Assembly: GCA_000063525.1 (NCBI GenBank) | Contig: CT978603.1 | Location: forward strand, 801,105 to 865,104 | DNA: 64,000 bases | Direction: 5' to 3' | Source: Synechococcus sp. RCC307 | GTDB taxonomy: Bacteria; Cyanobacteriota; Cyanobacteriia; PCC-6307; Cyanobiaceae | Part shown: in pieces, positions 55,386-58,175 of the stretch | Position numbering within the stretch: position 1 is the stretch's first letter | Layout: every line of letters starts with the position of its first letter | Translations under genes and position numbers: made by a program | The notes under the pieces: generated by a model | What the model saw: only the letters and a program-made list of their open reading frames with translations | Told to the model about the DNA's origin: nothing | The model's database searches: none

Positions 55386-57956
55386 TCAACCGCTGGCTTG
55401 GCCTGAGAGTTGGCGCAACAGAGCGCAGGTGAATTGATTGGAGCGCTGCATCAACGCCTCGAACGCCTCTTTGGGAAACACCAACAACTCGGCTCCCTGG
55501 CTCCCGGCGACGACGGAATCATTGCTGGCGTCTTGGCGCATCAGGGCTTGGGCATCAATGGTTTGATCTGGCCCAAGCTGCTGCTGGTCGCTGTTGGATT
55601 GCACCACGGCGCCTCCTTGCAAAATCAGCAGTAGGGCAGAACTGGGCTCCCCAGAACGTCTCAGCAGTTCTCCCGCTGTGGCATGGCGCAGGCTGCTGTT
55701 GTTCAGCACCCAGATCAGTCCTGCTGGTGGCAGGTCGGCAAAGCTGGTTGAAGCCGCCAGATGCACCAAGGCGGGGTGAGCCGCTTCCGGTTCAGCTGCC
55801 AATTGCGCTTGCAGAAAAGGTGAGCTGCCAAGCCCTGGGCGTGGGGGGAGGTTGTTGATGGCCACTTGAGCTGGTTGCAAGGTCCGTTGCAGCATCAACG
55901 TCCAGCCGGCGGTGTCGGGGTCGGGATCGAGCCAGAGCATGGCGAAGGCCTCCTCGAGCGAGCCAGCGGCGCCCACGTTGCGCAGCATCTCGGCGAGTTC
56001 GCCTTTTGGGCGATGCTGTTCAACCAGCTCCAAGGTGGCGGCCACCTTGAGGCCCATGGCCACGGCTAAGGGGTTGAACAACGCGTTGCGCTGGCCTTCT
56101 TGCTCCAGCAGCTGCTGCAAACCAAGCTCCTGTTTCAAGCGCTGGCAGCGCTGCTGCAGCCGTTGCTGGGCAATGTCTCCTTCCGGCGCAAAGCGGCTCA
56201 ACACAGCCTGGCAACTTTCGGCCTCTAGGCCTGAGTTCGCCTGCAAGCGCTCCAGTTGCTGGCGCAATTCAGGCCGCAGTTGCCCAGGGTTGAGCACCTC
56301 AACATTGGCGGCGCCCAACAGTTGCTCAAGGGCATCAGCCAAGGCTTCTCTTCGCAGTTCCTCCAATTGCCGTTCGCGCTGATCAAGGCCTTGCAACGCC
56401 GGTTCCTCTTCAGCGAGAACGCGCATCACCTCGAGGTGGTCGTCGGTGCTGAGGTCCAGGGCATCCCTGAGTTCGGCCAGTTGCACCAGGGCTGAAGCTT
56501 GATCAAGCCGGCCGGTGTCGAGCATGTCGCGCACCACACCCCGGTAGATGGTTGTCATCTGGCTGCGCAGGGCGAGCGGCAGAGCCTTGGCCAGCGTGAA
56601 CACCTCTTGGGCGGGCAGTTGATCCAGTTGGCGTCCGTCGAGTGCAGCCTCAAGGCCCGGCAGGTCCTTGAGCTGGCGGCGCAAGCTGTCGCTGGCGCTC
56701 TCCCGGCGGTAGGTGGCTTGATCACGCCCCCAGCCGCGAAACAGCACGATGGCTGACACGGTCAGCACCAGCGAGCGAATCCATTGGCCGCCGTGGGGTC
56801 CCATCGCACCTTGGGTGGGATCCACGAACCAGAAAAACGAGTTCACAGCCAGGAAGGTGGCCAGTAGCCGTGTCCGGCTGATGGCGAGCTCGCTGGGATC
56901 TGGATATCCGATTCGCGTCAGTCCCCGTTGAAGCCGGCCTTCAATGGCTGAAAACATCCGCACCGAAAGCCAAGCTCCAAGGCTCAGCAGCAACGGAACA
57001 GCCAGCAACTTGGGCAGCGGCAGCAGGCTGTTGAGTGGATCGAGGGCGCGGCTGCTGAGGCTGGCATCAAAGGCCCACTTGCCATAGCGCAGGTAGCTGA
57101 GTTGGGCGTTGGGTGGGGCGAGATGGGCCTCCACCTGCATCATCAACTCAAAGAACATCAACACCAGGCCGGGGTAGGAATACCAAGCCCAGCGCAGGCC
57201 GCGTTTGCCCTTGAGCTGTTGCCAGAAGGCCCGCTCCGCATCGATGTCGATGCACGGCGCCTGACAGGCCACGCAGGCGCTTTGCTCACTGCCATCGGGC
57301 CGCAAGGTTCGGCAGGTCGACTGACTGGTTTTGCTGCGCGGGCCCAGATGGGCGGTGCTGCCAAGGGCACCGCGCTGGCCGGTGATCACGGTTTGCACAG
57401 GGCCCATGGGGCAGAAGTATTGGCACCAGGCTTTGCCTCCGTAGGCCCAGCCCACCAGCAGGGCCGCGGCGATGGTGACCAACAGCAACGCAGCCAGCCC
57501 GCTTGGGGAGGCATTCACCACCAGCAACCGCAGGCAAAGCCCGGCGATCAGCAGGCTCCATTGCAGTTGGATGTGATGGCGACCGAGCCAGGAATTGGCA
57601 TCGATTTTGACCACAACCGGCTTGCCCTGTTTGTTGAGCACCTGGCGCTGCCAACCGAGATAGCGGAAGAGCTGTGAGAGGAACGCCAGTGGGCAGATGC
57701 GGCGCCAGAGCTCGTGGCTCAATACCACCAGCATCAACACCGATGAGGGAACAACGACTCCCCAAAAGAGACGATTGCCTGGCTCTCGGTGCAGAACGCA
57801 GGCGGCAGCCTCTGGATCACATTGCGGCGCTAAGGCCTCGGGCAATTGAAGGGCCGGTATGAGCAGCGAGAGAATCAGCAGCCCCCAGCCGATCAGGAGG
57901 CACCAGCGCACCACGCGAGCTTGTCGCTCCGGCCAAAGACTGAGGCCTTGCATCAA
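55386..57956 (-). CDS. Fe-S membrane protein fused to a cyclic-nucleotide-binding domain
   Basis: 856 residues. N-terminal ~430: about seven TM helices with ferredoxin-type clusters in the NapH/NosR/CcoG style, WCQYFCPMGPVQ and CVACQAPCID. Middle (~440-700): soluble and helical, rich in Gln, Leu, Glu (LEELRREALADALEQLL). C-terminal (~735-850): a CAP/cNMP-binding-like beta-roll (TAGELLRRSGEPSSALLLILQGG ... LVFPKEAFEALMQ). This suggests membrane electron transfer gated by a small ligand or by partner binding. The ligand pocket lacks an obvious cAMP-type RSALVELALM stretch. Physiological partner unknown. Confidence 0.75.
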   Translation of the reverse strand: MMQGLSLWPERQARVVRWCLLIGWGLLILSLLIPALQLPEALAPQCDPEAAACVLHREPGNRLFWGVVVPSSVLMLVVLSHELWRRICPLAFLSQLFRYLGWQRQVLNKQGKPVVVKIDANSWLGRHHIQLQWSLLIAGLCLRLLVVNASPSGLAALLLVTIAAALLVGWAYGGKAWCQYFCPMGPVQTVITGQRGALGSTAHLGPRSKTSQSTCRTLRPDGSEQSACVACQAPCIDIDAERAFWQQLKGKRGLRWAWYSYPGLVLMFFELMMQVEAHLAPPNAQLSYLRYGKWAFDASLSSRALDPLNSLLPLPKLLAVPLLLSLGAWLSVRMFSAIEGRLQRGLTRIGYPDPSELAISRTRLLATFLAVNSFFWFVDPTQGAMGPHGGQWIRSLVLTVSAIVLFRGWGRDQATYRRESASDSLRRQLKDLPGLEAALDGRQLDQLPAQEVFTLAKALPLALRSQMTTIYRGVVRDMLDTGRLDQASALVQLAELRDALDLSTDDHLEVMRVLAEEEPALQGLDQRERQLEELRREALADALEQLLGAANVEVLNPGQLRPELRQQLERLQANSGLEAESCQAVLSRFAPEGDIAQQRLQQRCQRLKQELGLQQLLEQEGQRNALFNPLAVAMGLKVAATLELVEQHRPKGELAEMLRNVGAAGSLEEAFAMLWLDPDPDTAGWTLMLQRTLQPAQVAINNLPPRPGLGSSPFLQAQLAAEPEAAHPALVHLAASTSFADLPPAGLIWVLNNSSLRHATAGELLRRSGEPSSALLLILQGGAVVQSNSDQQQLGPDQTIDAQALMRQDASNDSVVAGSQGAELLVFPKEAFEALMQRSNQFTCALLRQLSGQASG

Positions 57957-57995
57957 CCGAGCTCTTGCATGTTCTGTTGGTAGCTCGCCCTGGCC

Positions 57996-58175
57996 TCAAC
58001 GTCGGATGGTGTAGAGCACCGCGAACAACACAACGCCGCTGACAAACGCCACCAGCAACGATTTTTTGGTGATCACCAAAGGCCGGCCGGTGTGCACCGT
58101 GGCGGCAAAGGCATACAGCACCCCATAGCCAATGCAGAAGGCTTTGGCGAAGACCAGGAGCAGGAGCCAATCCAT
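57996..58175 (-). CDS. Small two-TM membrane protein
   Basis: 59 residues, ATG at 58175 to TGA at 57996. Helices DWLLLLVFAKAFCIGYGVLY and SLLVAFVSGVVLFAVLYTI are separated by the polar turn TVHTGRPLVITKK, with a basic end RR. It lies 39 bp upstream of the Fe-S/cNMP fusion on the same strand, so the two may be co-transcribed and the small protein could be an accessory subunit; that link is inference. Confidence 0.6.
   Translation of the reverse strand: MDWLLLLVFAKAFCIGYGVLYAFAATVHTGRPLVITKKSLLVAFVSGVVLFAVLYTIRR

What the first reader, a model, noticed from the sequence alone, without database searches (positions are those of the whole stretch)
55386..58175. Fe-S membrane module fused to a cNMP-binding-like domain, with a tiny membrane neighbour
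NapH/NosR-like TM clusters, ~260 residues of helical linker and a CAP-like domain lie in one chain. A 59-residue two-TM gene (57996-58175) sits just upstream on the same strand. Redox transfer controlled directly by a ligand-sensing domain would be a new regulatory arrangement.
Basis: partly seen in the sequence, partly recalled or inferred. Interest (0 to 1): 0.55.

Follow-up and report, generated by a model that had tools for sequence, protein, structure and literature searches.

The report
Membrane iron-sulphur protein with retired sensor
A cyanobacterial family of membrane proteins with iron-sulphur-type cysteines carries a built-in domain of the kind that senses cyclic AMP, which could couple electron transfer to a signal; the copy in this genome keeps the cysteines but has lost the residues that normally hold the signal molecule.

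Summary
The fusion is real: 55386-57956(-) encodes a membrane Fe-S module (Fer4_5), a helical linker and a C-terminal cNMP-binding (CNB) domain. Matches occur in 165 of 388 cyanobacterial genomes searched. Nine cysteines are each kept in at least 98 of 99 members called. Members come without CNB, with CNB, or with FHA+CNB. Short forms precede a flavin/2Fe-2S reductase in 18 of 23 loci. A class III cyclase was called in the fetched stretch for 11 of 23 members with the canonical GE...R pocket, 0 of 44 with the DEL pocket, 0 of 28 without scored CNB. So redox transfer under a ligand-sensing domain is plausible for the GE...R branch. It is unlikely here: the window's pocket reads IDAQ...ASN instead of GE...R, a loss shared with two sisters, and its genome has no PF00211 cyclase match. 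However, pocket-lost relatives also lie near cyclases (4 of 7), so cyclase proximity does not track pocket integrity. The 59-residue gene was not found beside 19 relatives inspected. Function and direction of electron flow are inferred. Ten paper searches found no description.

The parts
55386..57956 (-). whole gene: membrane Fe-S module + helical linker + degenerate CNB domain (856 codons from TTG; likelier ATG start at 57953)
   Evidence: family
56727..57929 (-). membrane Fe-S module (residues ~10-410); family-averaged hydrophobic segments near 21-31, 66-84, 136-169 (taken as two helices), 265-271, 310-331, 366-380, 390-400
   Evidence: hydropathy; helices of the low-confidence model; Fer4_5
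57798..57821 (-). C46/C53 pair in the first, predicted extracytoplasmic loop; each kept in 98 of 99 members
57693..57695 (-). C88 of the WRR-I-CP motif, 99 of 99
57234..57440 (-). C178-x3-C182-P, C215, C228-x2-C231-x3-C235: predicted Fe-S ligands on the cytoplasmic side; 99 of 99 each
55758..56726 (-). helical linker (residues 411-733)
55407..55757 (-). CNB beta-roll domain (residues 734-850)
55506..55562 (-). degenerate phosphate-binding cassette TIDAQALMRQDASNDSVVA (residues 799-817); orthologue L002 reads TIGEMGVITGNPRNNTVKA
57996..58175 (-). 59-residue two-TM ORF; no conserved link to the big gene found; weak paralogue at L186:4057-4233(-)

Best explanation
The gene encodes a member of a cyanobacterial family of membrane Fe-S electron-transfer proteins. 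The membrane part carries seven invariant cysteines on the predicted cytoplasmic side (one or two [4Fe-4S] sites) and a cysteine pair on the predicted outer or lumenal side. Electrons probably enter from a cytosolic flavin/2Fe-2S reductase (or ferredoxin) and pass into or across the membrane. The linker and C-terminal domains are regulatory. In the GE...R branch the CNB domain probably binds cAMP; in other forms an FHA domain or a kinase/FHA partner may do a similar job. In the window's own protein the CNB fold persists but the ligand residues are gone, so the domain most likely acts as a fixed structural or docking element and the electron-transfer part works without cAMP. Shown: fusion, conservation, neighbours, loss of the pocket residues. 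Inferred: cluster content, direction of electron flow, cAMP as ligand in relatives, loss of binding here.
For: Domains. Seven Cys 99/99, C46 and C53 98/99, H81 98/99, H203 97/99; charge pattern fits Fe-S loops inside, if 136-169 is two helices. Short form followed by a reductase in 18 of 23 loci; all 19 reductases scanned (18 plus L097's) match FHA, FAD, NAD and 2Fe-2S domains. 13 of 23 short forms have a same-strand upstream gene of 380-700 aa, of which 11 match Pkinase and 11 WD40. FHA+CNB form in 8 loci: a divergent cyclase gene 206-636 bp away in 6, 3.7 kb away in 1, none in 1; 7 of 7 of these cyclases have CxxCH. Cyclase in the fetched stretch: GE...R 11/23, DEL 0/44, no scored CNB 0/28. 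In the window's family 18 of 32 main copies lie within 20 kb of a PF00211 match, 1.24 expected. Window pocket loss. No PF00211 match in the own genome; by eye none of the other five PF00027 matches there shows the full GE...R.
Against: No biochemistry. Within the window's family, cyclase proximity is hardly better for intact pockets (13 of 20) than for pocket-lost CNB copies (4 of 7), so it tracks the locus rather than the pocket. DEL paralogues there show 0 of 11, but only 0.57 were expected, so that zero is uninformative alone. G266 keeps GE...R with no PF00211 match in its genome, while G276 and G382 lost it with two matches each. The commonest pocket type (DEL, 44 of 99) lacks the Arg, so cAMP control cannot be the rule for the family. 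No acceptor is known and no reductase gene sits beside the window's gene. Only one Fe-S signature passes a Pfam cut-off. An unrelated sugar-transferase model matched some short forms about as well as CcoG (best E 7.7e-4 versus 4.7e-4), so the CcoG/NapH likeness is thin. Related genomes are not independent.
Confidence: 0.45

Rival explanations
1. The window's CNB domain still senses a ligand, but a different one (another nucleotide or metabolite) in a remodelled pocket, so the protein is ligand-controlled.
For: The domain is retained in the window and both sister proteins, which still lie near cyclases; the beta-roll model is fair. Non-cAMP CNB relatives exist: NtcA and a cAMP-independent Trypanosoma PKA regulatory subunit bound to guanosine are among the fold matches. 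The DEL branch keeps a strongly conserved non-canonical pocket.
Against: The window and its sisters share little in the cassette (TIDAQALMRQDASN versus VIGAMDVISGEPSM), unlike the tightly conserved DEL type.
Confidence: 0.27
2. The protein is an assembly or maturation factor (CcoG/RdxA-like) for a metal centre rather than an electron-transfer conduit, and the CNB/FHA domains control assembly.
For: Weak matches at E <= 1 to CcoG in 13 of 17 short forms (best E 4.7e-4) and to NapH in 7 of 17 (best E 5.7e-5). A DUF362 gene, from recall a family met in Fe-S contexts, lies directly downstream in 4 loci of one genus (cluster; L113's copy scanned).
Against: The partner of the short form is a complete reductase, which points to NAD(P)H-driven electron flow. 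CcoG scores shown are 8.6 and 10.2 bits against a cut-off of 316.7.
Confidence: 0.2
3. The window copy is decaying and has little function.
For: The gene is not found in the 5 other same-genus genomes searched (these are 74-92% complete) and the pocket residues are lost.
Against: An intact 856-codon frame; all nine conserved cysteines and H81/H203 are retained; 69% identity to the nearest relative over 503 columns of the membrane-linker region.
Confidence: 0.06

Closest known systems
NapH/MauN and CcoG/RdxA/FixG membrane ferredoxin-type proteins (TIGR02163, TIGR02745; Pfam Fer4_5)
   Same: Membrane protein with a C-x3-CP motif after a helix and further cysteines; weak profile matches
   Different: Scores far below family cut-offs; an outer-side Cys pair kept in 98 of 99; a long linker and CNB/FHA domains; different gene partners
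cNMP-gated bacterial membrane proteins with C-terminal CNB, e.g. the MloK1 channel
   Same: C-terminal CNB domain on a membrane protein; MloK1 entries are the best sequence matches of the window's CNB
   Different: The membrane part is a predicted redox module, not a channel; pocket residues are missing in the window's protein
cAMP islands of picocyanobacteria (Syn_GI122 in PMC7522525; passages read)
   Same: Cyclases near a cAMP-regulated MscS-type channel; L077 has a CHASE2-cyclase and a cNMP-MscS gene near the Fe-S gene, and L081/L082 have clustered homologues
   Different: The Fe-S/CNB protein is not mentioned in the passages read
Haem-Cache (DUF3365/Tll0287) sensors (PMC12889525, preprint; abstract and passages read)
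   Same: Partner cyclases of the FHA+CNB form carry this domain (4 scanned: L099, L102, L117, L118) and CxxCH (7 of 7)
   Different: The paper concerns the sensor domain; its main text holds no '4Fe-4S'

Membership tests
Pfam cNMP_binding (CNB) domain | profile score over curated cut-off and beta-roll fold | tested here: met
   32.5 bits vs 27.5; fold matches up to Z 11.6 to CNB structures on a model of mean pLDDT 68
cAMP/cGMP receptor (functional CNB) | phosphate-binding cassette with Gly-Glu and Arg | tested here: not met
   window G/E/R replaced by D801/A802/S811; met in 23 of 99 members called
cAMP/cGMP receptor (functional CNB) | measured ligand binding | not testable with these tools
   needs protein
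cAMP/cGMP receptor (functional CNB) | a nucleotide cyclase in the genome | tested here: inconclusive
   0 PF00211 (class III) matches in the own genome, 99.97% complete; other cyclase classes were not searched
Fer4_5 membrane Fe-S proteins | profile score over curated cut-off | tested here: met
   26.1 bits vs 22; E<=0.001 in 29 of 32 aligned members
CcoG (TIGR02745) | score over equivalog cut-off 316.7 | tested here: not met
   10.2 bits
NapH/MauN (TIGR02163) | score over subfamily cut-off 213.05 | tested here: not met
   6.9 bits
NosR | extracytoplasmic FMN-binding domain plus membrane clusters (recalled) | tested here: inconclusive
   no such domain listed by Pfam or NCBIfam; no direct profile comparison made
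Fe-S electron-transfer protein | bound [4Fe-4S] clusters and redox activity | not testable with these tools
   7 invariant Cys only

The most novel reading that the evidence does not exclude
Cyanobacteria possess a family of transmembrane electron conduits (NAD(P)H reductase to membrane Fe-S clusters to an outer-side dithiol or other acceptor) whose conductance is gated inside the same polypeptide by second messengers and phosphothreonine: cAMP through a CNB domain, and phosphothreonine through an internal FHA domain or through a phosphorylatable tail bound by an FHA-bearing reductase. The window's lineage has hard-wired the switch by losing the cAMP pocket.
Probability: 0.28. Interest if true: 0.8.

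Novelty: new variant of a known kind. Interest (0 to 1): 0.53.

Why it matters
Control of membrane electron transfer is usually thought of as transcriptional or through redox poise (recall). A family in which cAMP-type or phosphothreonine sensors are welded to a membrane Fe-S module would give cyanobacteria a fast, signal-gated redox valve, and it suggests a direct target for cyanobacterial cyclases. The natural series of pocket-intact, pocket-altered and pocket-lost members makes the idea directly testable.

Tried and rejected
Full-length structure: AlphaFold2 with the four eligible sequences gave mean pLDDT 46.9, pTM 0.29; no fold search was made on it. PDB sequence profiles: with the short forms only two chance-level matches (E 0.49 and 0.6); with the A4 profile the 60 rows shown of 265 cover CNB positions only. 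Small gene as partner: rejected. tblastn in the loci then held found nothing better than E 0.045 outside the own genome; no match at E 0.001 in 200 other family genomes or 290 other class genomes; in 19 relatives no similar ORF in the 600 bases upstream, although five (L079, L080, L084, L086, L087) show longer ORFs with a hydrophobic stretch, L080's 108-residue one the most TM-like. Pocket loss explained by cyclase loss alone: rejected as sufficient. Function of the DEL branch from neighbours: only hints.

Papers: ten searches gave no description of this fusion in the listings seen; only open-licence PMC text is held. Three papers were opened: passages of PMC7522525; outline, abstract and passages of PMC12889525; passages of PMC10117731.

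Dropped rows and biases: the genome counts include the own genome and matches to the CNB part alone (at least G454, G475 and G498). L002 and L004 duplicate L081 and L082 and were left out of counts. L091, L092 and L130 gave no family gene with my simple gene caller and are not among the 99; it also missed some cyclases in GC-rich loci. The 99 leave out L006-L074 places not fetched again, among them L070-L073, which lack GE...R too. The pocket label rule was mine; L121 (LLNELEILGNLEAM) was counted as DEL. 'No scored CNB' (28) is 23 short forms and 5 longer frames. Of the 4 lost-pocket members, L077 has a cyclase in its stretch. In one search the 32 genes are one main copy per genome, of mixed pocket state (20 GE...R, 7 CNB without it, 5 without CNB or fragments, where L094 was printed under 'other' but has no CNB); the 11 are DEL paralogues of the same set of genomes plus G490. 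Second copies and fragments (e.g. G465:C41, G516:C9, G466:C1:646907, G423:C18, G010:C45) were left out, and some gene-bearing genomes (e.g. G445, G414, G438) were not searched for cyclases. The expected value assumes random placement and independent genomes; contig breaks lower the observed count. The cyclase profile was built from cyclases seen in these loci. The tail-motif shuffle test used patterns written after seeing the tails. Neighbours scanned were chosen by eye. The tree is a quick one, midpoint-rooted, without bootstrap.

Full report
What is there. The gene on the minus strand at 55386-57956 is an intact frame of 856 codons (TTG; an ATG at codon 2 is likelier, in line with relatives L002 and L004). 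Pfam finds Fer4_5 and cNMP_binding, both above curated cut-offs. The window lies in a single 2,224,914-base contig, 99.97% complete; the size recalls Synechococcus sp. RCC307, but that name is from memory. The 59-codon two-TM ORF lies about 40 bp upstream.

The family. Protein searches matched 165 of 388 cyanobacterial class genomes and 57 of 201 family genomes at E 0.001, the own genome included; a few of these matches (at least G454, G475, G498) cover only the CNB part. None of the five other same-genus genomes matched. From 103 fetched stretches plus the window I called 99 distinct members. Seven cysteines (C88, C178, C182, C215, C228, C231, C235) are identical in 99 of 99, C46 and C53 in 98, H81 in 98, H203 in 97. 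Averaged hydropathy and charge fit the seven-cysteine loops inside and the C46/C53 loop outside, provided residues 136-169 form two helices (inference). Similarity to CcoG and NapH is weak, far below cut-offs, and little better than an unrelated sugar-transferase model. A PDB profile search with the short forms found no relative.

Three builds. (i) Membrane module with a short tail, 541-628 aa, no CNB: 23 loci. In 18 of 23 the next gene on the strand (in L156 the next but one) is a reductase; all 19 such reductases scanned, including the one next to L097, match FHA, FAD, NAD and 2Fe-2S domains. Thirteen of the 23 have a same-strand upstream gene of 380-700 aa; of these, 11 match Pkinase and 11 match WD40. 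(ii) Module plus linker plus CNB, like the window. (iii) Module plus linker plus FHA plus CNB, 1058-1264 aa: 8 loci (L097, L099, L102, L103, L116, L117, L118, L152). Of 32 aligned members of builds ii and iii, 31 pass E 0.001 for CNB and 29 for Fer4_5.

Link with cyclases. In the FHA+CNB form a divergently oriented class III cyclase lies 206-636 bp away in 6 of 8 loci (in L117 and L118 with a short called ORF between), 3.7 kb away in L097, and none was called in L152's stretch. The genomes of the first seven hold 7 to 27 PF00211 matches each, so chance adjacency is small, though the loci are related. All seven cyclases carry CxxCH; the four scanned (L099, L102, L117, L118) match Tll0287 and Guanylate_cyc. 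A preprint reports haem-Cache (Tll0287) domains fused to signalling modules as having properties of NO sensors (PMC12889525, abstract). Over all members, a cyclase was called in the fetched stretch for 11 of 23 with the GE...R pocket, 0 of 44 DEL and 0 of 28 without scored CNB; of the 4 with a lost pocket, 1 (L077). Using PF00211 positions in the window's family, 18 of 32 main copies lie within 20 kb of a cyclase (1.24 expected under random placement); 0 of 11 DEL paralogues do, with 0.57 expected. Split by pocket, those 18 are 13 of 20 GE...R, 4 of 7 CNB without GE...R and 1 of 5 without CNB or fragmentary. So cyclases go with this branch of the family, but within the window's family they do not go with an intact pocket. 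cAMP as the ligand of GE...R members is a fair inference, not a demonstration.

The window's own sensor. A model of its CNB domain has the expected fold at moderate confidence. Against MloK1 (4muv, a mutant entry; 1u12, 3clp, 1vp6 and others also match), FFGEMALISGEPRSATV stands opposite TIDAQALMRQDASNDSV; the orthologue L002 reads TIGEMGVITGNPRNNTV and aligns with PKA regulatory subunits. In the tree of the membrane-linker part the window groups with L076 and L077 (SH-aLRT 99), all three without the pocket residues, inside a set of 11 with 8 GE...R (96). L095 and, in the wider alignment, L070-L073 also lack GE...R with a different sequence. The genome has no PF00211 match, while 39 of 47 related genomes searched do. 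G276 and G382 (L077, L076) have cyclases but lost the pocket; G266 (L078) has the pocket but no PF00211 match. So the pocket was probably lost before, or independently of, the cyclases.

The small gene. It has no match at E 0.001 in 200 other family genomes or 290 other class genomes, where seven genomes with hits at E 0.011-0.1 are unconvincing. No similar ORF was seen in the 600 bases upstream of 19 relatives. A weak paralogue elsewhere in the genome makes it a possible lineage-specific small membrane protein, not a conserved partner.

How it most likely works. The reductase next to the short form suggests the direction: NAD(P)H to FAD to 2Fe-2S to the membrane Fe-S sites, and then to an unknown acceptor, possibly a quinone or the outer cysteine pair. 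Signalling parts may set the flow: CNB/cAMP, FHA/phosphothreonine, or a tail with threonine motifs (post hoc). The window's protein keeps the redox part and seems to have retired the cAMP switch. All functional steps are inference.

Known or new. Each part is known; the combination was not found in ten full-text searches of an open-licence library. PMC7522525 reports cyclases near CRP and a cAMP-regulated channel in picocyanobacterial islands (passage); the passages read do not mention this gene. I rate it a new variant of a known kind.

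Noticed in passing
L106, L156, L158, L161, L162, L166, L168, L170-L173 and neighbours: Recurrent gene set: Ser/Thr kinase-WD40, short membrane Fe-S protein, FHA-FAD-NAD-2Fe-2S reductase; a possible phosphothreonine-controlled redox operon in cyanobacteria.
   Followed up: partly
C-terminal tails of short forms, e.g. L114:5753-7606, L167:5390-7240, L169:5639-7474: Tails rich in (D/E)xTVxRP or TLA(K/R)TIAK motifs, candidate phosphothreonine docking sites for the reductase's FHA domain (patterns written after seeing the tails).
   Followed up: partly
L110, L113, L119, L125, L139, L142, L146, L147 and one more: DEL-pocket members lie within five genes of a nitrate/bicarbonate-type ABC permease cluster in 9 of 44 loci; NtrB/NtrCD models pass their cut-offs where scanned (L110, L119, L125).
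   Followed up: partly
L113, L139, L147, L155: A gene cluster directly downstream of the DEL-type gene in four loci of one genus; L113's copy is DUF362.
   Followed up: no
DEL-type CNB domains (44 of 99 members): A strongly conserved non-canonical cassette, xLDELEVLxHSxSENTIxA, without the phosphate-binding Arg; possibly another ligand.
   Followed up: partly
L070-L073, L095: A second group of pocket-less CNB members reading (I/L)GLxDYxG... in the cassette, some still near cyclases.
   Followed up: partly
L186:4057-4233(-): A 58-residue two-TM ORF similar (38%, E 0.0026) to the window's small ORF 57996-58175.
   Followed up: partly
residues 46 and 53 of the window protein (57798-57821): Near-invariant cysteine pair in a predicted outer-side loop, a possible redox-active disulphide.
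   Followed up: partly
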